From positions 1 through 55,680 of the IMG/VR virus record IMGVR_UViG_3300029983_000358: a DNA stretch of 55,680 nucleotides, one strand, 5' to 3'. The DNA comes from a virus. Below are positions 16,162-54,429 of the stretch, piece after piece (position 1 is the first letter of the stretch; every line of letters begins with the position of its first letter). The position numbers and the translations under genes were made by a program. Under the pieces are notes generated by a model. It was not told where the DNA came from. It was given only the letters and a program-made list of their open reading frames with translations, and did no database searches.

Positions 16162-18045
16162 TTATTCATTAGCATTTACAATTGTGTTCCTGTCGTATGC
16201 TAATTTTTGTTGTCCTGATGAATCTACATATAATTCTTTTGTGTAAGATTGATAAACATGAGTAGATGATGAGAAATCCAATCCACCACTAGTACTAAAT
16301 GAATCAAAAATATTATTCATTCTAAAATAACTTCCAATCCTATTATTTTGAAATAGATTTCCAATACTATTATATCCAAAATTACTACCAATAGTATTAT
16401 AATTAACAAAATTTCCAATAGTATTACCATAAAAATAACTATCAATACTATCATTTCTAAAATTACTACCAATACTATTATTTATAAAATTACTACCAAT
16501 ACTATTATAATAAAAATAACTTCCAATACTATTATAATAAAAATCAATACCAATACTATTATATGCAAAATTACTACCAATACTATTAGAATTAAAATTA
16601 CTACCAATACTATTATATCCAAAATTACTACCAATACTATTCATTCTAAAATTACTACCAATACTATTATAATAAAAAACACTACAAATATTATTCATTC
16701 TAAAATCACTACCAATATTATTAGAATAAAAATCACTACCAATACTATTAGCATTAAAATAACTACCGATACTATTAGAATTAAAATAACTACCAATACT
16801 ATTATAAAAAAAATCACTACCAATACTATTAGCATTAAAATAACTACCAATACTATTAGAATAAAAATAACTACCAATACTATTAGAATAAAAATTACTA
16901 CCGATACTATTAGAATTAAAATTACTACCAAAAATGACATTATTTGAATTATATAATATTTCTATATTTGAATTAGGAAATTGAATAATATTAGAATATG
17001 CTGTTTCATAATTACTCCAATCACTCCACATATTATAATCAGTATATTCGGTTGAACATGATATTCTTAAATTACCAACAGATAAATTATCAGGAAAGAT
17101 ACTAATATAACTTAAATTATTCCATTCAAATAACTTCCAAACTTTTTCATTGTCTTGACTTGGATCTACATTGTATGTATTATTAGTTATACAAATATAA
17201 ATATTTAATGAATCTTTATATGAAACAACACTATTTCTAGTATAGGTTATTCCTGAAATCCAACTATTAGTAACATTTATTTGCCATCTTCTAAACTTAG
17301 CTTGTCTAAAATCAAAAGGAATATCATTATTTTGTAATGTATCTATTCTTCTATAAATATATCCCTTTGTACAACCTGGAATCATAACTTGATCATTTTT
17401 ATGATTGTAATAAATTACATCCTGAGGATATAAAGTAGAATAAGCTTCTGGTTTCAATGTATTTAATCCACTAGCTGTAACTAATAACGGTTCAATGATA
17501 CCAGTAGATAAATAATCATTTGGATATTCAAAAACCTTTGTATCACTCCAATAATTAGGTGATTCATTAGTTGCTATAAATGGAACTCCATCACTTACAT
17601 AACCTACATTACTAAAATCATCATCAGAGTTTTCATCAGGATTATTAGTTTTAAATAAGTAATATATGATATATTCCTTTCCTATTTCTAAATTATTCCA
17701 ATATTCAGTGTACGGTATTACATGTACTGTCTGATAATCAGTTATTAAATATGAAGAATTTATTGTTAATCCACTATTATTTATTAATTCACTCAATTCA
17801 TTATATGTAACATTAGTTACTACACTTCCAGTACTTCCTGTATTTGATGTACCATCAACTCCTGATGTACCATTTAATCCATTTACACCTGAAGTTCCAG
17901 ATGCTCCAGAATTTCCGTTTCCAGTTGTTCCTGTCATTGCATAAACTTCATTAAAATTGTTATTAATTTTAATGAATGAATCTCTTAGATTATCACCAGT
18001 GCCGTCATTAGGATATGTGCCGATATTAATTGTTTGTTTGCTCAT
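16162..18045 (-). CDS. Tail-fibre-like adhesin with nonapeptide repeats
   Basis: 627 residues. Residues 1-40 (SKQTINIGTYPNDGTGD ... INNNFNEVY) match a motif common near the N-terminus of phage fibre and structural proteins. A short collagen-like stretch (GTSGVNGLNGTSG) follows, then VTNVTYNELSELI, YLITDYQTVH, GCTKGYIYRRIDT and FRRWQ blocks, then a W..G.TY.RN.VV..K segment resembling a chitin-binding CBM5/12 fold (inference). About 20 copies of NSIGS.F.. come next, and the end is STHVYQSYTKELYVDSSG. Probably a surface appendage that contacts the host. Confidence 0.85.
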   Translation of the reverse strand: MSKQTINIGTYPNDGTGDNLRDSFIKINNNFNEVYAMTGTTGNGNSGASGTSGVNGLNGTSGVDGTSNTGSTGSVVTNVTYNELSELINNSGLTINSSYLITDYQTVHVIPYTEYWNNLEIGKEYIIYYLFKTNNPDENSDDDFSNVGYVSDGVPFIATNESPNYWSDTKVFEYPNDYLSTGIIEPLLVTASGLNTLKPEAYSTLYPQDVIYYNHKNDQVMIPGCTKGYIYRRIDTLQNNDIPFDFRQAKFRRWQINVTNSWISGITYTRNSVVSYKDSLNIYICITNNTYNVDPSQDNEKVWKLFEWNNLSYISIFPDNLSVGNLRISCSTEYTDYNMWSDWSNYETAYSNIIQFPNSNIEILYNSNNVIFGSNFNSNSIGSNFYSNSIGSYFYSNSIGSYFNANSIGSDFFYNSIGSYFNSNSIGSYFNANSIGSDFYSNNIGSDFRMNNICSVFYYNSIGSNFRMNSIGSNFGYNSIGSNFNSNSIGSNFAYNSIGIDFYYNSIGSYFYYNSIGSNFINNSIGSNFRNDSIDSYFYGNTIGNFVNYNTIGSNFGYNSIGNLFQNNRIGSYFRMNNIFDSFSTSGGLDFSSSTHVYQSYTKELYVDSSGQQKLAYDRNTIVNANE

Positions 18046-18051
18046 TAATAT

Positions 18052-18070
18052 TTTTATTTCTATATATTAA
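18052..18070 (-). promoter_or_regulatory. Late-promoter-like box upstream of 16162-18045
   Basis: Reverse-strand TTAATATATAGAAATAAAA, seven bases before the ATG at 18045. Nearly identical to the boxes before the other fibre genes. Confidence 0.65.
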
Positions 18071-18072
18071 AA

Positions 18073-18100
18073 AACTCAGTTAAAATTAATTAACTGAGTT
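18073..18100 (-). terminator. Fibre-type terminator after 18109-19947
   Basis: Same AACTCAGTTAA / TTAACTGAGTT hairpin as at 16126, directly followed by the late-promoter box of the next gene. End of one cassette and start of the next are thus fused in about 50 bases. Confidence 0.85.
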
Positions 18101-18108
18101 GTTTATTT

Positions 18109-19947
18109 TTATTCATTAGCATCTACAATTATCATCTTGTCATATATTAACTTCTTATTACCTGATGAATCTATGTATAATTCTTTATTGTATTGATTGT
18201 AAACATGAGTAGATGATGAAAAATCCAATCCACCACTAGTACTAAATGAATCAAAAATATTATTCATTCTAAAATAACTTCCAATCGTATTATAATAAAA
18301 CAAACTTCCAATACTATTATTTTGAAAATTAATTCCAATACTATTAGAATTAAAATTACTACCGATACTATTATTTATAAAATTACTACCAATACTATTA
18401 TAATAAAAATAACTTCCAATAGAATTGTAATTGAAATAACTTCCAATATTATTATCATAAAAACCACTTTCAATAGAATTATTCTCACATGAAATTCCTA
18501 TTGTGTTATTTCTAAAATAACTTACAACATTATTATTATCAAAATTCCTTCCAATGTTATTAGAAGAAAAACTACTTACTATTATATTATTACTAAAACT
18601 ACTTCCAATTGTATTATTACTAAAAATACTTCCAATAATATTATATTGACACCCTTTTCCTATGCTATTTTGATAATATCCACTTCCAATTGTATTATTC
18701 ATAAAATCCATTCCAATTGTATTATTATTAAATTCACTTCCAATAATATTATTTCGAAAATTGCTTCCAATATTATTACCATCAAATCCACTTCCAATTG
18801 TATTACAATTGAAATCACCACCAAAAATCACACTATTTGAGTATCTAATTAAGTCCCCATATTGTGAATTAGATGAGCCTATTTTATTTGAATATGATGA
18901 TAAATAATTAGTCCAATCACTCCACATATTATAATCAGTATATCCTGTTGAACACATAATTTCTACATTATTACCAATATAACAAGAATCTGGATAAATA
19001 CTTATATATGATAAATTACTCCATTCAAATATCTTCCAAAAATTATCACTATCTTGAATTGGATCAATATTAGTTACATTATCAGATAAACATATATAAA
19101 TATCTGAATTTCCACATAATACTACATCATTCCTATTATAAGTAGTACTTGAAATCCAAATGTTAGTGACATCAATCTGCCATCTTCTAAATTTTACATT
19201 CCTGAAATCAAAAGATATATCATTATCATGTAAAGTATCAACTCTTCTGTAAATATATCCTTTTGTGCATCCAGGTGTAATAATTTGATCACTCTTATGA
19301 TTATAATAAATTACGTCCTGAGAATATAAAGTAGAATATGCTTCTGGTTTTAATGTATCAACACTACTTGATGTTACTAATAAAGGTTCAATTTGTGAAG
19401 TAAACAAATAATCAGTTGAGTAATCATATACATAAGTATTATCCCAATAATTAGGATATTCATTCGTTGATACAAATGGAACACCATCACTTAAATATCC
19501 AACATTACTAAAATCGTCAGATTCATCATCAGGATTATTGCTTTTGAATAAATGATATATAATATATTCTTTACCTATTTGTAAATTGTTCCAATATTCT
19601 GTATTAGGTATAATATGTACTGTCTGATAGTCAGTAATTAAATAAGATGAATTTGTTGTTAATCCACTATTATTTATTAATTCACTCAATTCATTATATG
19701 TAACATTAGTTACTACACTTCCAGTACTTCCTGTATTTGATGTACCATCAACTCCTGATGTACCATTTAATCCATTTGTTCCATTAAATCCTGATGTTCC
19801 AGATGTTCCAGAATTTCCGTTTTCTGTTGTTCCTGTCATTGCATAAACTTCATTAAAATTGTTATTAATTTTAATGAATGAATCTCTTAGATTATCTCCA
19901 GTTCCATCATTTGGATAAGTACCGATATTAATTGTTTGTTTGCTCAT
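18109..19947 (-). CDS. Tail-fibre-like adhesin with nonapeptide repeats, paralogue of 16162-18045
   Basis: 612 residues. The first about 110 residues and the last about 60 are nearly identical to 16162-18045, including at DNA level, while the nonapeptide region differs (NNTIGS.F.. with more NNI and fewer NSI). The middle keeps YLITDYQTVH, GCTKGYIYRRVDT and the W.S.TY.RNDVV segment. This pattern of constant ends and a changed centre suggests duplication followed by gene conversion at the ends. Confidence 0.86.
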   Translation of the reverse strand: MSKQTINIGTYPNDGTGDNLRDSFIKINNNFNEVYAMTGTTENGNSGTSGTSGFNGTNGLNGTSGVDGTSNTGSTGSVVTNVTYNELSELINNSGLTTNSSYLITDYQTVHIIPNTEYWNNLQIGKEYIIYHLFKSNNPDDESDDFSNVGYLSDGVPFVSTNEYPNYWDNTYVYDYSTDYLFTSQIEPLLVTSSSVDTLKPEAYSTLYSQDVIYYNHKSDQIITPGCTKGYIYRRVDTLHDNDISFDFRNVKFRRWQIDVTNIWISSTTYNRNDVVLCGNSDIYICLSDNVTNIDPIQDSDNFWKIFEWSNLSYISIYPDSCYIGNNVEIMCSTGYTDYNMWSDWTNYLSSYSNKIGSSNSQYGDLIRYSNSVIFGGDFNCNTIGSGFDGNNIGSNFRNNIIGSEFNNNTIGMDFMNNTIGSGYYQNSIGKGCQYNIIGSIFSNNTIGSSFSNNIIVSSFSSNNIGRNFDNNNVVSYFRNNTIGISCENNSIESGFYDNNIGSYFNYNSIGSYFYYNSIGSNFINNSIGSNFNSNSIGINFQNNSIGSLFYYNTIGSYFRMNNIFDSFSTSGGLDFSSSTHVYNQYNKELYIDSSGNKKLIYDKMIIVDANE

Positions 19948-19953
19948 TAATAT

Positions 19954-19972
19954 TTTTATTTCTATATATTAA
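19954..19972 (-). promoter_or_regulatory. Late-promoter-like box upstream of 18109-19947
   Basis: Reverse-strand TTAATATATAGAAATAAAA just upstream of the ATG at 19947, identical to the box at 18052-18070. Confidence 0.65.
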
Positions 19973-19974
19973 AA

Positions 19975-20002
19975 AACTCAGTTAAAATTAATTAACTGAG
20001 TT
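19975..20002 (-). terminator. Fibre-type terminator after 20009-22408
   Basis: AACTCAGTTAA / TTAACTGAGTT hairpin immediately after the stop of the FISUMP-containing fibre gene and before the promoter box of the next. Confidence 0.85.
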
Positions 20003-20008
20003 AGTTTA

Positions 20009-22408
20009 TTATGCATTTGCATCTACAATTATCATCTTGTCATATATTAACTTCTTATTACCTGATGAATCTATGTATAATTCTTTATTATATGAATTAT
20101 AAACATGAGTGGATAATGAGAAATCTACTCCAGTATAATCAAAATTAAAATTATCAAAAACATTATTCATAATAAACCCACTTCCAACTGTATTATATTT
20201 AAAATCACTTTCAATAGTATTCTGATTGAAATTATCACCAATATTATTCTGATAAAAATTATATCCAGTTGTATTTTTAGAGAAATTATTACCTATTGTA
20301 CAATTAGAAAAATAAATTTTTAATATATTATTATTAAAGTTATCTCCTATTGAATTATTATTAAACACTCCATTAATAATATTACTATTAAAGTTATCAC
20401 CAATAGAATTATTATATTGAAAATAATTTTTTATATCATTACTAGCAAAAGAATTTCCTATTTTATTACTTTGGAATCCATTTCCTATTAAATTATCCCG
20501 AAAATCACCCAAAATAATATTATAATTAAATGAACTTCCTATTATGTTATTTTGAAAACTATCTCCTGTTTTATTATTATAAAAATTAATTCCTGTATTA
20601 TTATATTGAAAATATTTTCCTATATTATTATCATGACAATTATCACCCATTACATTATTGTTAAAACTATTTCTAATTATATTATTAGTAAAATAATTTC
20701 CGTTAATCTCATTTGAATTAAATCCATCTAAAATAATATTACCATAAAAATCATCACCAGATGAATTATTATGAAATCCATTAGAAATTGAATTTCTGCC
20801 AAAATCACCATACGTATTATTATTTGTAAAATCAGACCCTATTGAATTATTATAAAAAACATCTATTATTATATTATTTCTAAAATTATTCTTTATTGAA
20901 TTATTACTAAACTCTGCATAAATATCATTATTACTAGATGAACCATAAAAAATAGAATTACTATAAGATATATTATTACGATTAGCCATTGAATTAATCT
21001 TATTCGAATAAGAAGATATATAACCATTATAACCCCAATTGATCCACATGTTATAATCAGTATATCCAGTTGAACAATTTATTGAAAAATTAGAAAGACT
21101 CCAGCTATTATTAACTGGACTTACATAACTTAAATTGGTCCATTCAAATAACTTCCATGAATTTTCATTATCACTTGATGGATCAATTCCAGTTACATTA
21201 TCATTTAAACAAATATAAATATTATTAGAGTTAGGATATAAAACTACACTATTCTTATTGTATGATGTTGAATTTTCCCATGTATTTGATGTGACGTCAA
21301 TTTGCCACCTACGAAACTTAACATTTCGGAAATCAAATGGAATATCATTATTCTGAAATGTATCTATCCTTCTATAAATATATCCCATTGTGCTACCATC
21401 TATCACTTTTGTCATTGCCATACTATCTACGATTTTTGGATCATTACTCACTTCATAGTAAATTATATCTTGAGGAAATAAACTTGAATATGACTCAGGC
21501 TTTAATGTATTTAATCCACTTGCAGTTACTAATAAAGGTTCTATGATACCAGTATTAATATCACTTGTATTAGGTATGGCATGAACTGTCTGATAATCAG
21601 TAATCAAATACTGACTACCAATTGTTAATCCGCTATCATTAATCAATTCACTTAATTCATTGTATGTAACATCAGTTACGGAAGAACCTCCTCCTGTTGG
21701 TAAATTGTCAATATCACTAGCATATATCTTTCTATCTAATGTTGGTCTAATATGAGTTAAGTCATCAGTTGTCGTTATGTCATATACATTATTTTCATCA
21801 TCATTATATGAACATACTGCACCAAATGTTCCAGAAAAATCTGAACCAATAGGATCACCATTTTGATAATGTCTAACTGCTAAATTCTGTTGCAACCACA
21901 CTTGGCTACCAATTGTTACAGAGTGATAAGTGTCTCCATCAATAATTACATCGCCTTCATTATTAGAATCATTTTTAATAAGCTTAATATATGATCCAAA
22001 TTTTAAAGAATCAACCCCTCCAGAATTTCCAACATAAAATGTATTATTAACATAATAATAAACGTATTTAATGTAAGAGCCATCCCACTCCGTAGTCATA
22101 ATTCTTTCTAAACTATTAATACCGGCAAATTCAAATGGGTAATTATATTGACCACCATATATACCTCCAGATAATAATATCGGGAATCCATTGGCTTCAT
22201 TTAATGTTTGGCATTCTGCTACTGTAGCTATATGCCATCCTATAGGAGCAATACCTCTTGAATCAGTTGCTGCATACCAATTGTAAAGCCTGCCGTATTT
22301 AATAGTTTTTCCTGTAATTGAAGGTATTAATTCCCAAAATGATTCACCAGTACCTCCGCTCAATTTTCCATCTACCCACTCTTCACTTGCTAATTGTATA
22401 TTTAACAT
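20009..22408 (-). CDS. Tail-fibre-like adhesin with FISUMP-type domain
   Basis: 799 residues, the largest protein here. It opens with the anchor LNIQLASEEWVDGKLSGGTG. Next is a FISUMP-like region: KYGRLYNWYAATDSRGIAP, GWHIATVAECQTLN, and later TYHSVTIGSQVWLQQNL. FISUMP domains are typical of Bacteroidota surface proteins. Then come the shared VTDVTYNELSELI, YLITDYQTVHAIPNT, YIYRRIDT and CBM-like W..STSYNKNSVV segments, over 30 degenerate nonapeptides, and the STHVYNSYNKELYIDSSG end. Confidence 0.85.
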   Translation of the reverse strand: MLNIQLASEEWVDGKLSGGTGESFWELIPSITGKTIKYGRLYNWYAATDSRGIAPIGWHIATVAECQTLNEANGFPILLSGGIYGGQYNYPFEFAGINSLERIMTTEWDGSYIKYVYYYVNNTFYVGNSGGVDSLKFGSYIKLIKNDSNNEGDVIIDGDTYHSVTIGSQVWLQQNLAVRHYQNGDPIGSDFSGTFGAVCSYNDDENNVYDITTTDDLTHIRPTLDRKIYASDIDNLPTGGGSSVTDVTYNELSELINDSGLTIGSQYLITDYQTVHAIPNTSDINTGIIEPLLVTASGLNTLKPESYSSLFPQDIIYYEVSNDPKIVDSMAMTKVIDGSTMGYIYRRIDTFQNNDIPFDFRNVKFRRWQIDVTSNTWENSTSYNKNSVVLYPNSNNIYICLNDNVTGIDPSSDNENSWKLFEWTNLSYVSPVNNSWSLSNFSINCSTGYTDYNMWINWGYNGYISSYSNKINSMANRNNISYSNSIFYGSSSNNDIYAEFSNNSIKNNFRNNIIIDVFYNNSIGSDFTNNNTYGDFGRNSISNGFHNNSSGDDFYGNIILDGFNSNEINGNYFTNNIIRNSFNNNVMGDNCHDNNIGKYFQYNNTGINFYNNKTGDSFQNNIIGSSFNYNIILGDFRDNLIGNGFQSNKIGNSFASNDIKNYFQYNNSIGDNFNSNIINGVFNNNSIGDNFNNNILKIYFSNCTIGNNFSKNTTGYNFYQNNIGDNFNQNTIESDFKYNTVGSGFIMNNVFDNFNFDYTGVDFSLSTHVYNSYNKELYIDSSGNKKLIYDKMIIVDANA

Positions 22409-31604: not shown

Positions 31605-32027
31605 TTAAAATACCTTAATTGTGAAGTCATCTTCATCACAAGTATATTCTGTGAATTTCAGATTATAATCTAATGATTCTTGAGTAATTGAATATGAATT
31701 TATATTTTTATTGTTATGTAATATATCAGTAATAAGGTTTTTAAGTATAATATAGCTATCAGTATAATAATTATCTTTAAAGAACTTCCAGATTTCATCA
31801 TAGTCACAGAATAAAACTTTATCTTTTTTATTTTGTTCAAATAATAAAATTCCTTTTATATTAATTGGTAACTTAACAGTTTTATTATTTAATTTAGACA
31901 GTTTAAGTTTTCTAATAAATTGTTCATCATATATCCAGTATATGGAATCAGGATACGCAGCACGCTTAACTGGATAGCATGAGTTAAATTTATTTAATAA
32001 CCATTCACTTAGTTCTTCTTTATTCAT
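31605..32027 (-). CDS. SCY-family protein
   Basis: 140 residues: [62 protein letters not shown]. The tail (LKFTEYTCDEDDFTIKVF) lacks the TKL..Y.P repeat of its upstream neighbour. An AAATATTATACA sequence precedes the ATG. Function unknown. Confidence 0.88.
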   Translation of the reverse strand: MNKEELSEWLLNKFNSCYPVKRAAYPDSIYWIYDEQFIRKLKLSKLNNKTVKLPINIKGILLFEQNKKDKVLFCDYDEIWKFFKDNYYTDSYIILKNLITDILHNNKNINSYSITQESLDYNLKFTEYTCDEDDFTIKVF

Positions 32028-32035
32028 TGTATAAT

Positions 32036-32575
<540 letters not shown>

Positions 32576-32592
32576 CTACAAAGATAATACAT

Positions 32593-32973
32593 TTATTTGA
32601 TAATATTAGGTCTTAGTGGATAATAACTATGATATGGAGTATATAAGAACAATTTTTCATTATCTAACAATATTTCCAGTATAAGACATTTAACTTCATT
32701 GTAGTCAGTTGAGTAATTTGTTATAAAAAATGACCACACTTCATCATAATCACACCATAATTTTTTAGTGAATACATTTTGTTCAAATAAACATATGCCT
32801 TTGATTTGGTTTGTAATTATATAATCAGAATTACATATCTTACACATTTTAATCTTTCTTGCAATTTGTTCATCATAGTACCAATAAATGCAATTAGGAT
32901 AATCAGAATGAGTAATAGAATAGCACAAATTAAATTTGTTATTGAACCATTTTCGTAATTCTTCTTTATTCAT
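32593..32973 (-). CDS. SCY-family protein, operon head
   Basis: 126 residues: MNKEELRKWFNNKFNLCYSI (Leu for Ser before Cys), YPNCIYWYYDEQIARKIKMC, GICLFEQN, CDYDEVWSFFITNY, then ILLDNEKLFLYTPYHSY as a single C-terminal unit. Short compared with its neighbours because it has only one such unit. Confidence 0.88.
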   Translation of the reverse strand: MNKEELRKWFNNKFNLCYSITHSDYPNCIYWYYDEQIARKIKMCKICNSDYIITNQIKGICLFEQNVFTKKLWCDYDEVWSFFITNYSTDYNEVKCLILEILLDNEKLFLYTPYHSYYPLRPNIIK

Positions 32974-33072: not shown

Positions 33073-33106
33073 AAAAAAAAGAAGAACTAAATGTTCTTCT
33101 TTTTTT
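33073..33106 (-). terminator. Terminator after 33105-33359
   Basis: AAAAAAAAGAAGAAC paired with GTTCTTCTTTTTTT around TAAAT, overlapping the stop codon of the tagged gene. Confidence 0.8.
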
Positions 33107-33359
33107 ATATGTTAAATTTATTAGTTATTTTACTGATGTCATAACTTTCAATTTGATCTGGTGTCATTAGATATAATACTTTCTCTTCAAAATAAAGTGT
33201 AGGATATTCTTCTAATGAATATAAAAATTCTTTTCTATATTTAGAATATTCTGCTTCAGATACAACTCCTCTTCTACCTCCTGTTGATATAACACAATCT
33301 CCTACTTTAAATTTACTCATACTATTATCAATCTTTTCAAACTCCTTAATGTATTTCAT
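33105..33359 (-). CDS. Tagged SH3-like protein, paralogue of 35074-35343
   Basis: 84 residues: MKYIKEFEK, KFKVGDCVISTGGRRGVVSE, YLMTPDQIESYDISK and NKFNI. The VGD turn plus a short basic GGRRGVV loop suggests a KOW/SH3-like domain (inference). It pairs with 35074-35343 through KF(K)(V/K)GD and LMTP(D/E)QIE.Y, with the large inverted repeat lying between the two genes. Confidence 0.87.
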   Translation of the reverse strand: MKYIKEFEKIDNSMSKFKVGDCVISTGGRRGVVSEAEYSKYRKEFLYSLEEYPTLYFEEKVLYLMTPDQIESYDISKITNKFNI

Positions 33360-33376
33360 GCAGGTATATATTAAAT

Positions 33377-34378
33377 TTATTTAACGTTTGTGTCATTCAA
33401 AGGAGAACTAAGTATATCATAAATTCGATAAATACTTTCCCAAACATATACAGCTCCCTCATGATTTGAATTATCAACATATTCAGCAAACAATAAAACT
33501 TTTCCTCCAACTTCTACTATTTCAGGATCTGCTACTTGATTTGTATCAGGAAAAGGTGATCTTGTGATATCCAATAATGGATAGTATATCTTTTCAAAAT
33601 ATAATGGATTATTAAAATCTGCCTCTGCATATCCAAGAATTGAAGGTGGAGTTGCCTGCATTGAATAATGATAAAACATTTTAAATATACCATTATCATA
33701 GAATACTTTTGCTCCACCATGAGAACTATATGCAGGAGCTAATCCATTAACAACACCAACCATCTCCCAGCCACTTTCCATTGAGATGCTTTTTAATAGT
33801 TTCATACCCCATGGACTTCCTGAATCCATTGATTCACGACCTTCAATAAACCAGTAAAAATAGCCATCAATTCTGTATGGAATTATACAATGATTACCAA
33901 ACATACCCGCTTTAAAATTACTAACAACATCCAATAAAGTTTTACTAATTACCGTAAAATTTCTACCATCTGTGGATGATAACATTGCACAATAGTTGCT
34001 ACTCCAACAACTAACTACCATATATACCTTGGAGTTAAATATAAAAGCGTAACTACATTTTACTATAGCTGAATCAATACCTAATAATGCTGAATTAACT
34101 GCAATTGATGTATTGGTAGCAATATGATTTAATACATCATACTCAGCTACATTAATATGTTCTGATTCCCATCCCTCAGTATAATAAATAAAATTTATAC
34201 CATTAAACTTTACAAGTCCAAATTCCTGAGCACTAGGTACTGAAAGTCCTTGTACCAATGTAGCAGAATCATTTGAAATCAATTTTTGCTTTAAACTCAT
34301 AGCACCACTATCTCCTCCTGTCGAACCAGTTAATTGCACTCCTACCCATTCTTCACTTGCTAATTGTATATTTATCAT
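33377..34378 (-). CDS. Fibre-type protein with five-bladed-propeller-like body
   Basis: 333 residues. The anchor INIQLASEEWVGVQLTGSTG is that of the fibre family, but the rest is different: NHCIIPYRIDGYFYWFIEGR, SSHGGAKVFYDNGIFKMFYH, SILGYAEADFNNPLYFEK and VADPEIVEVGGKVLLFAEY. These look like blades of the GH43/GH32-type beta-propeller. A glycan-binding or glycan-cleaving tip is likely; without an alignment I cannot name catalytic residues. No fibre-type hairpin follows its stop, unlike the other fibre genes. Confidence 0.8.
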   Translation of the reverse strand: MINIQLASEEWVGVQLTGSTGGDSGAMSLKQKLISNDSATLVQGLSVPSAQEFGLVKFNGINFIYYTEGWESEHINVAEYDVLNHIATNTSIAVNSALLGIDSAIVKCSYAFIFNSKVYMVVSCWSSNYCAMLSSTDGRNFTVISKTLLDVVSNFKAGMFGNHCIIPYRIDGYFYWFIEGRESMDSGSPWGMKLLKSISMESGWEMVGVVNGLAPAYSSHGGAKVFYDNGIFKMFYHYSMQATPPSILGYAEADFNNPLYFEKIYYPLLDITRSPFPDTNQVADPEIVEVGGKVLLFAEYVDNSNHEGAVYVWESIYRIYDILSSPLNDTNVK

Positions 34379-34413
34379 ATTTTTTTATGATTATATATTA
34401 AATTTAATTACTG

Positions 34414-34551
34414 AATATTACTGTGGTGACTTCTATTATTTAACAATCTTTAACTTGGTATATCCGATATAAAGCGTTATCTTTGTATCGTGATTGACAG
34501 TGTAATGCCTGGAGTATATTCTCCAACGCGGGACATTACGTAACTGTTAAA
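34414..34551. repeat. Left arm of large imperfect inverted repeat
   Basis: Four blocks match the right arm exactly in reverse complement: AATATTACTGTGGTGA (34414-34429), TTTAACAATCTTTA (34439-34452), AAAGCGTTATCTTTGT (34471-34486) and TACGTAACTGTTAAA (34537-34551). The sequence between blocks has diverged. Confidence 0.85.
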
Positions 34552-34859
34552 CAATCATTATAAATGTTATCACTTTAACTGTTTTAACCTAACAATATTA
34601 AACTTGTTAAGGATTTAACTCTTCACAAATGTACAACACACTTTAAATCAAATAGTTACAGAGATATACAGGAAATATGCAGGATTAACGCATAATTATA
34701 GATGTTAATACGGTATATAAAATGCATAAACGTAACTCTGTTATTTACAGATAGTTACAAGTAAGTCCTATAATAATATATTATGATCAATACTAATTTC
34801 CTGTTATAACTGTTAAGGATTTAACTACTGTTATACTAATCTTAAATAAGTTAAAATGT

Positions 34860-35012
34860 TTTAACAGTTACGTATTACCCCGCTCTCGGGCTCCATGATC
34901 CTACGTCCATGTTATCAAGACAAAGATAACGCTTTTAATTGATTTTACAAAATTTTATATGGTTAAGAATAAATAAAGATTGTTAAATTTAACATATCAC
35001 CACAGTAATATT
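34860..35012. repeat. Right arm of large imperfect inverted repeat
   Basis: Mirror blocks at 34860-34874, 34920-34935, 34974-34987 and 34997-35012. A GC-rich CCCGCTCTCGGG palindrome lies at about 34878-34890. The corresponding place in the left arm has GCGGG and TGGAG...CTCCA. Confidence 0.85.
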
Positions 35013-35056
35013 TACAAAGTAAATACCTGCAACAGCAGTAATGTTCGATAAATAAA

Positions 35057-35070
35057 TTTTAATATATAAC
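35057..35070 (+). promoter_or_regulatory. Late-promoter-like box upstream of 35074-35343
   Basis: TTTTAATATATAAC three bases before the ATG at 35074. Confidence 0.4.
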
Positions 35071-35073
35071 AAT

Positions 35074-35343
35074 ATGAGACACATTAAAAACATTAAACAA
35101 TTTAAATCAAGTAGAAATTCTAAATTTAAAAAAGGAGATTATATCATGTCAACTAAAAGTAATAAAAAAGGTATTATAGATAATATAATATCTTCTGATA
35201 AACCTGAAGATTTTGAATTTGCATATCATTTAAAAGATTATAAAGATAATATTTATCTTAAAGATACAAGTATAATATTAATGACACCAGAACAAATTGA
35301 ACAATATAACCTTGAAAAATCAACTGATAAATTTAACCTATGA
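35074..35343 (+). CDS. Tagged SH3-like protein, paralogue of 33105-33359
   Basis: 89 residues: MRHIKNIKQFKSS has the KQF element slightly displaced and Lys instead of Glu after it. Then KFKKGDYIMSTKSNKKGIID, ILMTPEQIEQYNLEK and DKFNL. Its stop overlaps the ATG of the LRR gene at 35340. Confidence 0.88.
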   Translation: MRHIKNIKQFKSSRNSKFKKGDYIMSTKSNKKGIIDNIISSDKPEDFEFAYHLKDYKDNIYLKDTSIILMTPEQIEQYNLEKSTDKFNL

Positions 35344-35906
35344 AATATATTAAACACTTCGAAAGATCTTATGTAACAGTAAATTATTCTAATCAACATT
35401 TAACTGAACTTCCTATATTACCTGATATATTATATGAATTGTATTGCTCAAATAACGACATATATAAGCTACCTACATTACCTGATACATTAATATATAT
35501 TACCTGCGCTAATAATAATCTTAATGAGCTACCTGAGTTGCCAATATCATTGAAACATTTATTTTGCTATAATAATAAATTGAATGAACTACCTAAATTA
35601 CCTGACAGCTTATTAACATTGTCATGTAGTAGTAATAACATTACTGAACTTCCTATACTACCTAATAAATTAGAGTCATTGTCATGTAGTGGTAACTATA
35701 TATCTGAGCTACCTATGCTACCTAATACATTGATTGAACTGAATTGTAGTGACAATAACCTTACCATGCTACCTATACTACCTGATAGCTTAAAAACATT
35801 GTACTGTAATGGTAATGAACTACCATACACTAACCTCAAAGAGTATAATGAATGGCTAACGATAACCCATCCTGAAGTAATCAACGCTAAGAAGTTTAAC
35901 ATATAA
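35340..35906 (+). CDS. Tagged leucine-rich-repeat protein, 7 repeats
   Basis: 188 residues: MKYIKHFER, seven LRRs with LPILPD and LPMLPN turns, cap GNELPYTNLKEYNEWLTITHP and KKFNI. Codon use is a little more GC-tolerant (AAG, CTA, AGC) than in other LRR genes, and the C-tag is written AAG TTT AAC ATA. Last gene before the non-coding block 35907-37238. Confidence 0.91.
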   Translation: MKYIKHFERSYVTVNYSNQHLTELPILPDILYELYCSNNDIYKLPTLPDTLIYITCANNNLNELPELPISLKHLFCYNNKLNELPKLPDSLLTLSCSSNNITELPILPNKLESLSCSGNYISELPMLPNTLIELNCSDNNLTMLPILPDSLKTLYCNGNELPYTNLKEYNEWLTITHPEVINAKKFNI

Positions 35907-36056: not shown

Positions 36057-36097
36057 AATAAATGCTCTTAACATTTTATTTGTTGAGAGCATTTATT
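36057..36097 (+). terminator. Strong terminator-like hairpin
   Basis: AATAAATGCTCTTAACA paired with TGTTGAGAGCATTTATT (17 pairs, one U-G), seven-base loop, followed by GTTTTC. It ends transcription from 35074-35906 or starts the structured block. Confidence 0.7.
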
Positions 36098-36137
36098 GTT
36101 TTCTATACACTACACAGTATATCTTTATATGTATATA
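36092..36137. repeat. 46-base perfect direct repeat, copy 1
   Basis: TTTATTGTTTTCTATACACT followed by ACACAGTATATCTTTATATG and TATATA; the second copy begins exactly 220 bases later. Confidence 0.85.
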
Positions 36138-36311
36138 GTTCCGTAACACCACATCATGTGATATACTTTTCTTTCATCATTCAACGAGGGTCTAATGAAC
36201 TTACTCTCCTGATGCGTTAATTCGGGTGAACTCAACCCTATATAAAATGTATAGATACATTTTATTAATAAGTTTAATTTATTATACATATGTATCTACA
36301 TTAATAAAAAG

Positions 36312-36357
36312 TTTATTGTTTTCTATACACTACACAGTATATCTTTATATGTATATA
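36312..36357. repeat. 46-base perfect direct repeat, copy 2
   Basis: Identical to 36092-36137. The 174 bases between the copies include a GGGTGAACTCAACCC hairpin and an ATAAAATGTAT-AG-ATACATTTTAT hairpin (36242-36265). Confidence 0.85.
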
Positions 36358-36589
36358 AATATAATATACAGTAGTCTATCATACTTGTATGCTTATACAT
36401 ATAACTATACTGATGTCATTGATTATAATACTATGCATAGTTATAACTATGTTGTCATGGTGGATGAATGATATACACAGGTTGTGTGTAATACTTGGGT
36501 ACTACTGGGGTGCTATCCACTGGGTGGTATCTGGTATCAACATATCAATACTGCTGCTAAGGTATCTAAGTACCATGATAGAAATCTTA

Positions 36590-36835
36590 GAAATTTTTAA
36601 AGAGTTCTTCACAAGGTTGTCCATCAAGAGAGGGAGCGAAGAAGTTCATGAACATTTGTCGGAGATGACGACGCGCGAAAGTCGGCCGTGACTTACTAAG
36701 TGTTAATACGAATTCGCACTTGAGTCGGATGTTCATGAACACTTGCCTACTAGACTTGGTGATGGTGTTGAGCGACTTGCGCGTGTAGAGTGTGTATGCA
36801 GGTATAGGGCAGCCATGGCGAAAAATTGTTAATAT
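36590..36835. other. GC-richer, hairpin-rich block, candidate structured RNA
   Basis: Base composition rises sharply (by eye near 50% G+C against well under 30% around it). It contains GTTCATGAAC palindromes near 36646 and 36729, the second extended to TGTTCATGAACA, and stretches such as GACGCGCGAAAGTCGGCC. It is not read by a convincing ORF. A structured non-coding RNA or foreign insert is possible. Confidence 0.4.
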
Positions 36836-36885
36836 TTGAGTATGTTAATATTTGAAAAATTCCCCATGTGTTTTTTATATCAATA

Positions 36886-37220
36886 TTTGAATTTTTTTTT
36901 TGGAAAAATTTTAGAGGTATTTTACCCAGTTAAAATATTGAAATATGAGAAATCAATTTTTTTTTTTTGGAAATTTTTTGAGTATTTTGTATCAGAGTAT
37001 TTTTTAAATAAATTAAGTTGGATATTGAAATTCAAAAAATTTTTTTTGGTAAAAATTTAGAGTTATTTTACCCAGTTAAATTGTTACTATATGTTAAATT
37101 CAAAATTTTTTTTTGGGGAAAAATTTTAGAGTTATTTCTCAGAGTTTTTTTATGTTAAGTAATTTTGTACAATAAAGAGTTATATTTAGGAATCAAAAAA
37201 TTTTTTTGGGAAAAAAATTT
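36886..37220. repeat. Array of five A/T hairpins with G loops
   Basis: Five degenerate units, each a T run, then GG to GGGG, then an A run that can pair back, then TTT.GAG.TATT. GG positions are about 36902, 36969, 37048, 37115 and 37208, so spacing is 67, 79, 67 and 93 bases. Two units share TTTTACCCAGTTAAA. Function unknown. Confidence 0.75.
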
Positions 37221-37238: not shown

Positions 37239-38431
<1,193 letters not shown>

Positions 38432-48830: not shown

Positions 48831-49287
48831 TTATTTCAATACTATTAATTTTTTATATGAACTTGGAAGTAGAGATGACCAATCAGCTTCTCTAATTTCT
48901 AAATTTTTCTTACTTCTTATTAGTTCAGGATATCTAAATCCTTGTGAATTTTTTTTTGGTGAATACTTATTTAGTTGTTTATAATCATTTATAATTTCAG
49001 TTATAAATTTTTCAATTTGTATATAATTATTTATATAATTATTTTCAAAGAATTTCCAAACATATTCATAATGAAAGTAAATAATTTTATATTTAATATT
49101 TAAACTAAATAAGCATATTCCATTAACTTGATTTGGCGATGTTATTTTTATATTATATAACTTAAACAATTTAAGTTTTCTAATATATTGTTCGTCATAG
49201 AAATAAAAAACGTAATCATTCCATTCTTTATCTACTACTGGATAGCAATATAAAATTTTGCTAATCAACCAATTTGATAATTCTTCT

Positions 49288-49295
<8 letters not shown>
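48831..49295 (-). CDS. SCY-family protein, last of the 13-gene array
   Basis: 154 residues: MSKEELSNWLISKILYCYPV (Tyr for Ser before Cys), YVFYFYDEQYIRKLKLFKLY, GICLFSLN, HYEYVWKFFENNY, then NDYKQLNKYSPKKN and a charged tail. Starts inside the end of the upstream gene by eight bases. Confidence 0.88.
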
Positions 49296-51932
<2,637 letters not shown>

Positions 51933-51936
51933 ATTA

Positions 51937-52856
<920 letters not shown>

Positions 52857-53252
52857 TTATAATCTTGATTTTATAATACTATTTTCATATATATTTTTAA
52901 TCATACCAGGTAAAGGATTATAATCGAATAAAATTGGATGATCTTTTAGTAGTTTTTTTATTAGTTTTTGAATATCATAGTAGTCATATGAATAGTTTTT
53001 TTCAAAGAACTTCCACAATTCTTCACTCAGCCATAAAATTCTAAATTTATTATCCTGATTAAATAAAAATGTTCCTTCAACATTATTAATTGAAATTAAC
53101 TCTTCTGTATTATTTAATTTAAACAATTTAAGTTTTCTTATATATTTTTCGTCATAAACTAAGAATACACTATCTGGATATAATTCTACTTTAACTTGAT
53201 AGCAGGAATTATATTTATTCCAGAACCAATCATATAAATCTTTTTTATACAT
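52857..53252 (-). CDS. SCY-family protein
   Basis: Start at the second of two ATGs (53252), giving MYKKDLYDWFWNKYNSCYQV and the standard eight-base overlap. 131 residues: [41 protein letters not shown], then KDHPILFDYNPLPG and a basic end. Confidence 0.86.
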   Translation of the reverse strand: MYKKDLYDWFWNKYNSCYQVKVELYPDSVFLVYDEKYIRKLKLFKLNNTEELISINNVEGTFLFNQDNKFRILWLSEELWKFFEKNYSYDYYDIQKLIKKLLKDHPILFDYNPLPGMIKNIYENSIIKSRL

Positions 53253-53654
53253 CATTTAAATATAAACTTATTTTCTTGTAATTTTTCAATGATATATTAG
53301 CTGTTGATGAATTCATTGTTGGTAAATACATATTTAAATTAGTAATATTTTTTAGTATATCTTTCATGAATTTCTGATTATCATAGTAATCATCGGAATA
53401 GTATCTGAATAAAAAAGTCCAAATATCATCATTACAACGAAATTTTAATTTTTTAAAATCTTGTTGAAATATACAAGTTCCGTTAATTTCATTTGTAATT
53501 TTTATGTCTTGATTATTTATTTTGCCTAATTTAATTTTTCTAATGAATTGTTCATCATATATCCAAAAAATTATACTTGGATAATCCTCATGTTTAACTT
53601 TATAGCATTTTTTTAATGTCTCCAATATAAAATCACTTAATTCTTCTTTTGTCA

Positions 53655-53655
<1 letters not shown>
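53245..53655 (-). CDS. SCY-family protein with two C-terminal units
   Basis: 136 residues: [61 protein letters not shown]. Tail LKNITNLNMYLP, ten variable residues (TMNSSTANIS), then LKNYKKISLYLNDV: again a 12+10 pattern. One-base overlap with the upstream stop. Confidence 0.88.

Positions 53656-54429
<774 letters not shown>

What the first reader, a model, noticed from the sequence alone, without database searches (positions are those of the whole stretch)
34414..35012. Large imperfect inverted repeat without genes
Arms of about 138 and 153 bases share four exact blocks (16, 14, 16 and 15 bases) in mirrored order, with diverged spacers of different length, around a 308-base centre rich in GTTAA/TTAAC steps and a duplicated GTTAAGGATTTAACT. 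Between the arms lie further hairpins. It could be a large structured RNA closed by long helices (phages carry several such RNAs of about 600 nt), a replication origin, or the remnant of a mobile element. Paralogous genes (33105 and 35074) flank it on the two sides.
Basis: partly seen in the sequence, partly recalled or inferred. Interest (0 to 1): 0.78.

Follow-up and report, generated by a model that had tools for sequence, protein, structure and literature searches.

The report
Mirror-image phage gene switch region
The large inverted repeat in this giant phage of (probably) Bacteroidota is best read as two start signals facing each other across a shared stretch of about 430 bases, so that each of two outward-pointing gene sets is read through the other's start signal; this would act as a mutually exclusive switch, although no transcript data exist to prove it.

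Summary
The repeat is real (four exact mirrored blocks of 15-16 nt; half-to-half score 111 against a shuffle maximum of 63; fold z about -9) and non-coding. The 'large RNA closed by long helices' reading is not supported. The 16-nt block AAAGCGTTATCTTTGT is the core of a Bacteroidota-type promoter (TTTG-N19/20-TAnnTTTG). That motif is demonstrably this phage's promoter: 49 intergenic against 3 coding sites in 532 kb, typically 18-70 nt before a start codon. The repeat holds one such promoter in each arm, both pointing inwards (34454-34485 +, 34921-34951 -). They are the two best-scoring untrained sites of the window, both kept in a second phage lineage. They are the only convergent pair in that 532 kb; none exists in 1.18 Mb of two huge-phage relatives. 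Each predicted transcript crosses the shared ~430-nt centre and becomes a 540-590-nt leader of the gene on the far side, antisense to the other. Mirrored leader elements and three GTTAN6TAAC operator-like sites lie between. The cassette is ~79% identical in phage B, although both neighbouring genes are unrelated there. Best mechanism: excludon-like, mutually interfering two-way switch (inferred; no RNA data). Rivals: structured RNA, transcription-primed origin, invertible segment.

The parts
34379..35073 (.). whole divergent intergenic control region (no ORF over 23 aa)
34414..34429 (+). outer arm block, left: AATATTACTGTGGTGA
   Evidence: exact match to right arm; also in phage B; these two places only in the window
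34997..35012 (-). outer arm block, right
34438..34452 (+). second arm block, left: ATTTAACAATCTTTA
34974..34988 (-). second arm block, right
34454..34485 (+). inward promoter P(right): CTTG-N20-TATCTTTG, reads towards 35074
   Evidence: PWM 20.7 bits, not in training set; 23.6 in phage B
34921..34951 (-). inward promoter P(left): TTTG-N19-TATCTTTG, reads towards 34378
   Evidence: PWM 20.5 bits, not in training set; 18.4 in phage B
34490..34917 (.). shared centre predicted to be transcribed from both strands (start sites inferred from the -7 elements)
   Evidence: inference
34502..34539 (+). 5' hairpin of the predicted + leader (GUAAUG...CAUUAC with UGGAG/CUCCA); phage B differs only at unpaired positions
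   Evidence: alignment; fold z -3.7 for 34492-34566
34528..34551 (+). leader element GCGGGnnAnTACGTAAnTGTTAAA, left copy
34860..34883 (-). leader element, right copy
34566..34579 (.). operator-like GTTAN6TAAC site 1 (kept in phage B)
34606..34619 (.). operator-like GTTAN6TAAC site 2 (kept in phage B)
34812..34825 (.). operator-like GTTAN6TAAC site 3 (not kept in phage B)
33377..34378 (-). left target gene: 333-aa tail-associated-like protein (N-terminus MINIQLASEEWV shared with other tail-region proteins)
   Evidence: no PHROG/Pfam hit
35074..35343 (+). right target gene, 89 aa, paralogue of 33105-33359
35340..35906 (+). second gene of the right set, leucine-rich-repeat-like protein (PHROG 21719)

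Best explanation
The inverted repeat is a two-way transcription control cassette made of two mirror-image modules facing each other. SHOWN BY COMPUTATION: each arm carries, from the outside in, the block AATATTACTGTGGTGA, a phage/Bacteroidota promoter pointing inwards, and about 40-55 nt downstream the element GCGGGnnAnTACGTAAnTGTTAAA; three GTTAN6TAAC sites lie between them. INFERRED: RNA polymerase starting in the left arm (about 34490) reads rightwards through the centre and the right arm into 35074/35340. Polymerase starting in the right arm (about 34916) reads leftwards through the centre and the left arm into the 33377-34378 tail-like gene and the minus-strand genes behind it. The two 540-590-nt leaders are antisense to each other over about 430 nt, and each transcript runs over the other promoter. 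Firing of one should therefore occlude, collide with or (through double-stranded RNA) destabilise the other, making the two gene sets mutually exclusive, excludon-fashion. A regulator bound to the paired leader elements or the palindromic sites would set the choice. The conserved 5' hairpins are probably leader stabilisers or attenuator-like elements.
For: Motif TTTG-N19/20-TAnnTTTG in phage A (304 kb): 16 intergenic vs 6 coding hits with 2.6 intergenic expected, all 16 on the strand of the next gene. A PWM trained without the repeat's sites gives 49 intergenic vs 3 coding hits in 532 kb, about 0.4 per 55 kb in Markov sequence, and usual distances to ATG of 18-70 nt. Both arm sites score 20.7/20.5 against 15.9 for the next untrained site; both are kept in phage B at 23.6/18.4. 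They are the only convergent pair within 900 nt in 532 kb, at the same locus in A (436 nt apart) and B (456); none in 1.18 Mb of LR756500/LR756501. The published Bacteroidetes -7 box is TAnnTTTG (PMC5682007, PMC3090145), and the largest huge phages are predicted to infect Bacteroidetes (PMC7162821). Leader element: exactly two inverted copies per contig in six IMG/VR contigs, the other two hits in IMG/VR and GTDB being coding chance matches. GTTAN6TAAC: all 3 of the window's copies fall in the repeat; only 6 in 235 kb of the same phage. Cassette ~79% identical in B while flanking genes are unrelated. Excludon definition: PMC7154746.
Against: No transcript data: promoter activity, start sites, termination and mutual repression are all unmeasured. 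The left site's -33 box is CTTG (TTAG in B), not TTTG. The 543-589-nt leaders are far outside the usual 18-70 nt, so an unrecognised second promoter nearer each gene is possible. Only two lineages are available. No regulator gene was identified. The mirrored sequence outside the promoters (GTGGTGA, TTTAACAA) has no demonstrated role.
Confidence: 0.6

Rival explanations
1. A large structured non-coding RNA (about 430-600 nt) is the functional product, transcribed from one of the two promoters (or from outside); the complementarity closes its helices.
For: Fold z about -9 on both strands; GC-rich, nearly invariant 5' blocks (68 nt identical between A and B) in a ~22% GC genome; in the two-sequence consensus fold 4 two-sided and 10 one-sided compatible changes, none broken; pair conservation over the whole repeat above a shuffled-substitution null in all four tests (P 0 to 0.015).
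Against: The promoters sit inside the arms and point inwards, so the outer helices cannot belong to either RNA. In the part both RNAs share, pair conservation is inconsistent (P 0.04, 0.29, 0.51, 0.0). No Rfam family at gathering score, and only chance-level matches to unrelated small RNAs at E <= 10. The arms are explained by promoter sequence alone. Only two lineages, so covariation has little power.
Confidence: 0.2
2. Replication origin: the two inward transcripts prime leading strands in both directions, with the repeated GTTAAGGATTTAAC sites as initiator-binding repeats.
For: Overlapping face-to-face transcripts, AT-rich centre, repeated palindromic sites and direct repeats between divergently oriented gene blocks; one such locus per phage.
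Against: Third-position GC skew follows gene strand and does not switch at the locus. LR756500 and LR756501 lack the element, as do other long related contigs. It sits in a tail-gene region; no initiator gene was recognised next to it.
Confidence: 0.08
3. An invertible DNA segment (phase switch) that flips between the outer blocks.
For: The ~17 nt inside GTGGTGA look exchanged between left and right arms in A vs B (15/17 and 16/17 crosswise, 10/17 and 11/17 straight; read), as if the core inverted once. Bacteroides uses invertible promoters for surface structures (PMC3090145).
Against: All sequenced copies of a lineage have the same orientation (4 of phage A, 3 of phage B). No serine or tyrosine recombinase in the sampled phage A and B records; the only hit is in G014. 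Inverting a mirror-symmetric cassette would leave a promoter facing each gene.
Confidence: 0.07
4. Remnant of a mobile element with terminal inverted repeats.
For: Terminal-repeat-like symmetry; non-homologous neighbours in A and B.
Against: No other copy in the seven phage A and B records searched and no match in 12 further records beyond single promoter-like stretches. Same place relative to the second conserved non-coding region and the tail genes in both lineages. The blocks are explained as promoters.
Confidence: 0.03

Closest known systems
Excludon (overlapping long leaders of neighbouring genes; proposed from Listeria work, PMC7154746)
   Same: Predicted long leaders of two outward-pointing neighbouring gene sets overlap and are antisense to each other.
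   Different: Here BOTH transcripts have the long leader, both promoters lie across from their genes, and the promoter-leader modules are mirror-image copies; in a phage; mutual repression is not measured.
Face-to-face promoter switches of temperate phages (e.g. pR-pL of coliphage 186)
   Same: Convergent promoters with overlapping transcripts and operator-like sites between them.
   Different: No recognisable repressor genes downstream (tail-like protein; small protein plus leucine-rich-repeat protein); longer overlap (~430 nt); Bacteroidota promoter type; phage not known to be temperate.
Invertible promoters of Bacteroides (capsule loci, PMC3090145)
   Same: TAnnTTTG promoters inside inverted repeats, surface/adhesion-type target genes.
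   Different: No recombinase found in phage A or B records, no opposite orientation seen, two promoters rather than one.
Large phage-associated RNAs such as ROOL and GOLLD (from own knowledge)
   Same: Intergenic, about 600 nt, strongly folding, in large phages.
   Different: No Rfam match; closing arms are promoters upstream of the predicted start sites.

Membership tests
Bacteroidota-type promoter (-33 TTTG / -7 TAnnTTTG) | -7 box TAnnTTTG with a TTTG-like -33 box 19-20 nt upstream | tested here: met
   Right arm exact; left arm CTTG-N20-TATCTTTG (TTAG in phage B); PWM 20.7 and 20.5 bits
Bacteroidota-type promoter (-33 TTTG / -7 TAnnTTTG) | motif concentrated upstream of genes in this genome | tested here: met
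   49 intergenic vs 3 coding; 16 of 16 strict intergenic hits co-oriented with the next gene in phage A
Excludon | overlapping antisense leaders of neighbouring genes | tested here: inconclusive
   predicted from promoter positions only; no RNA data
Excludon | expression of one transcript represses the other | not testable with these tools
   needs RNA-seq or reporter assays
Temperate-phage face-to-face repressor switch | convergent promoters with overlapping transcripts | tested here: met
   promoters predicted: only convergent pair in 532 kb; transcripts themselves not measured
Temperate-phage face-to-face repressor switch | downstream genes encode mutually antagonistic DNA-binding regulators | tested here: not met
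   no such family hit for the flanking genes
Rfam large RNAs (ROOL, GOLLD and any other of 4227 families) | match to the family covariance model | tested here: not met
   0 hits at gathering score; none of these families at E <= 10
Invertible promoter segment | cognate serine or tyrosine recombinase in the genome | tested here: not met
   no PF00239 or PF00589 match in phage A/B records; genomes may be incomplete
Invertible promoter segment | both orientations present in the population | tested here: not met
   same orientation in 4 phage A and 3 phage B copies
Replication origin | strand-composition switch at the locus | tested here: not met
   third-position skew by gene strand; a weak test
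Mobile element with terminal inverted repeats | further copies at other loci | tested here: not met

The most novel reading that the evidence does not exclude
A self-contained mirror-image switch cassette: two promoter-plus-leader modules of the same kind facing each other, conserved as a unit while the genes on both sides are exchanged, so that any two gene sets put on its flanks become mutually exclusive; one ancestral inversion of its core would have swapped which leader serves which side. This would be a symmetric, cargo-independent two-way selector for tail-region genes of giant phages.
Probability: 0.3. Interest if true: 0.65.

Novelty: new variant of a known kind. Interest (0 to 1): 0.5.

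Why it matters
If right, it shows that a 600-base 'structured RNA-like' inverted repeat in a giant phage is really a symmetric two-way promoter switch, and gives a testable case of excludon-type mutual exclusion in a phage tail-gene region. It also supplies a statistically supported promoter model for these uncultured Bacteroidota giant phages, which makes their transcription units readable from sequence, and it warns that long imperfect inverted repeats with strong fold scores need not be RNAs.

Tried and rejected
ROOL/GOLLD-type RNA by Rfam at both thresholds: nothing. More homologues by exact seeds in IMG/VR and GTDB: only two lineages; the other seed hits examined were almost all inside ORFs and had no matching local repeat. 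The element in LR756500/LR756501 by nhmmer and in 12 further related records by BLAST: absent apart from single promoter-like matches. Structured RNA by pair conservation: inconsistent once restricted to the transcribed part. Whole halves as one 300-nt inverted duplication: homology ends at GTTAAA. The arms as a leader common to many genes: the outer block and leader element occur nowhere else (within the mismatches allowed) in the phage sequence examined, apart from weak 3-mismatch matches of the outer block. Tiny ORFs just after each start (MPGVYSPTRDIT / MDVGSWSPRAG) as leader peptides: all three codon changes between A and B are non-synonymous, so no evidence of coding. Origin by GC skew and recombinase search: negative.

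Full report
WHAT WAS CHECKED. The window is a 55,680-base IMG/VR virus record. The inverted repeat is there: blocks of 16, 15, 16 and 15 exact bases in mirrored order at 34414/34997, 34438/34974, 34471/34920 and 34537/34860, and the direct repeat GTTAAGGATTTAACT at 34606 and 34812. Half-to-half alignment scores 111 against a shuffle maximum of 63, and the region folds with z about -9 on either strand. It fills the whole 695-nt gap between divergent genes (minus-strand ATG at 34378, plus-strand ATG at 35074), with no ORF above 23 aa.

WHERE IT COMES FROM. Near-identical copies lie in three other IMG/VR contigs (phage A; 100% over 701 nt). A second lineage (phage B: L009, L012, L017) carries it at about 79% identity over ~600 nt. 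A protein from elsewhere in phage A is 50-53% identical to one in the huge phages LR756500 (462 kb) and LR756501 (735 kb). Al-Shayeb et al. describe a 735-kb genome and predict Bacteroidetes hosts for their genomes above 634 kb, all in the Mahaphage clade (PMC7162821); that the 735-kb record here is that genome is my inference from its size. In B both flanking genes are different: the left pair shares only a ~35-residue N-terminal LASEEWV stretch, the right pair nothing. The order repeat, plus-strand genes, second conserved non-coding region, minus-strand genes, plus-strand tail genes is kept. So the cassette is conserved independently of its immediate cargo.

THE KEY STEP. A BLAST hit of one arm alone to a site just before a gene elsewhere in the same phage (G017:172820) showed that AAAGCGTTATCTTTGT contains TATCTTTG, a Bacteroidota -7 box (TAnnTTTG; PMC5682007, PMC3090145). 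The strict motif TTTG-N19/20-TAnnTTTG in 304 kb of phage A gives 16 intergenic hits against 2.6 expected, all 16 on the strand of the next gene, mostly 18-67 nt before its start. A weight matrix built from 25 such sites, leaving out the repeat's own, finds 49 intergenic and 3 coding sites in 532 kb; Markov sequence gives about 0.4 per 55 kb. The two arm sites (34454-34485 +, 20.7 bits; 34921-34951 -, 20.5 bits) are the two best untrained sites of the window, and both exist in phage B (23.6 and 18.4 bits). They face each other 436 nt apart (456 in B) and are the only convergent pair within 900 nt in the 532 kb; 1.18 Mb of LR756500/LR756501 has none.

ANATOMY. From outside in, each arm has AATATTACTGTGGTGA, TTTAACAA, the promoter, a GC-rich stretch, and GCGGGnnAnTACGTAAnTGTTAAA. 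The last element (searched as GCGGGnnAnTACGTAnnTGTTAA) occurs in IMG/VR exactly twice, inverted, in each of the six contigs with the repeat; the two other hits in IMG/VR and GTDB are in coding sequence. Mirror homology stops there. Between the modules lie three GTTAN6TAAC sites, the only three in the window; phage A's 235-kb contig has six in all. The first part of the + leader can form a hairpin (GUAAUG...CAUUAC around UGGAG/CUCCA) whose stems are unchanged in B while three unpaired bases differ. The first ~50 nt of the - leader are identical in A and B.

HOW IT MOST LIKELY WORKS. Shown: promoter motif, orientation, conservation, uniqueness. Inferred: starts near 34490 (+) and 34916 (-); each RNA crosses the centre and the opposite promoter and becomes the leader of the far gene (543 and 589 nt from promoter to ATG, where 18-70 nt is usual). 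The leaders are antisense over about 430 nt. Occlusion, polymerase collision and double-stranded RNA would make the minus-strand gene set (33377-34378, 33105-33359 and the following genes) and the plus-strand set (35074, 35340) mutually exclusive, with the paired leader elements or GTTAN6TAAC sites as regulator targets.

WHY NOT A 600-NT RNA. The arms that would close it lie upstream of both predicted start sites. The matrix list shows no inward-pointing site just outside the repeat. Pair conservation is above the null for the whole repeat but inconsistent within the transcribed centre, which is what conserved promoters in the arms would produce. No Rfam family matches. Structured leader segments remain likely.

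OTHER READINGS. Origin: possible in principle (two overlapping transcripts could prime both leading strands), but skew does not switch and the relatives lack the element. Invertible segment: the ~17 nt inside GTGGTGA match crosswise between A and B (15/17, 16/17) better than straight (10/17, 11/17), suggesting one past inversion or conversion, but no recombinase was found in A or B and each lineage shows one orientation only. Mobile element: no further copies.

LIMITS. Two lineages only; metagenome collection not searchable; no expression data; contigs incomplete. The promoter claim is strong (about 0.85); the switching function is an inference from architecture (about 0.6 for the combined statement).

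Noticed in passing
window 36300-36860 (+): Second conserved non-coding region, GC-richer than its surroundings, kept in three lineages (A; B: L009 about 2760-2140; C: G007/L157). It has an invariant long helix GTTCATGAACATTTGTCGGA / TCGGATGTTCATGAAC and branch hairpins; alifold z -2.4 to -2.9 on +. No Rfam family. A better structured-RNA candidate than the finding itself.
   Followed up: partly
window ~36089-36134 and ~36321-36366: A ~45-nt direct repeat (TTTATTGTTTTCTATACACTACACAGTATATCTTTATATGTATATA); related contigs G017 and G018 end or start near here.
   Followed up: no
window 36870-37160: Array of short T-rich repeats (TTTTTTTTGGAAAAATTTTAGAG...ACCCAGTTAAA), also in phage B and C.
   Followed up: no
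window 34505-34543 (+) and 34911-34876 (-), approximate: Tiny ORFs right after both predicted start sites: MPGVYSPTRDIT (MTGVYSPKRGIT in B) and MDVGSWSPRAG (identical in B); both contain a G-x-[YW]-S-P run. No coding evidence.
   Followed up: partly
window 34430-34446 and 34980-34996: The stretches just inside the outer blocks are exchanged between left and right arms in phage A versus B, as after one inversion of the core.
   Followed up: partly
L009 about 5640-4850 (minus): In phage B the gene right of the repeat and its upstream stretch from the outer arm block onward are duplicated in tandem, breakpoint near CACCACA.
   Followed up: no
window 31605-32973, 37239-38431, 48831-54429 and other contigs: Large expanded family of ~150-aa proteins ([20 protein letters not shown]...), many tandem paralogues, no match in the phage records searched with one member.
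   Followed up: partly
L063 290-700 (LR756500): Non-coding region with near-perfect ~43-nt inverted-repeat arms around ~330 nt; fold z -7.2; no Rfam hit.
   Followed up: partly
L122 18159-18390 and L067 14509-14921: Group I intron in LR756501 and tmRNA plus tRNA cluster in LR756500, both in records without annotation.
   Followed up: no
window 16162-22408: Tail-fibre genes with T4 gp9/10 N-terminal domain and a Fib_succ_major domain protein.
   Followed up: no
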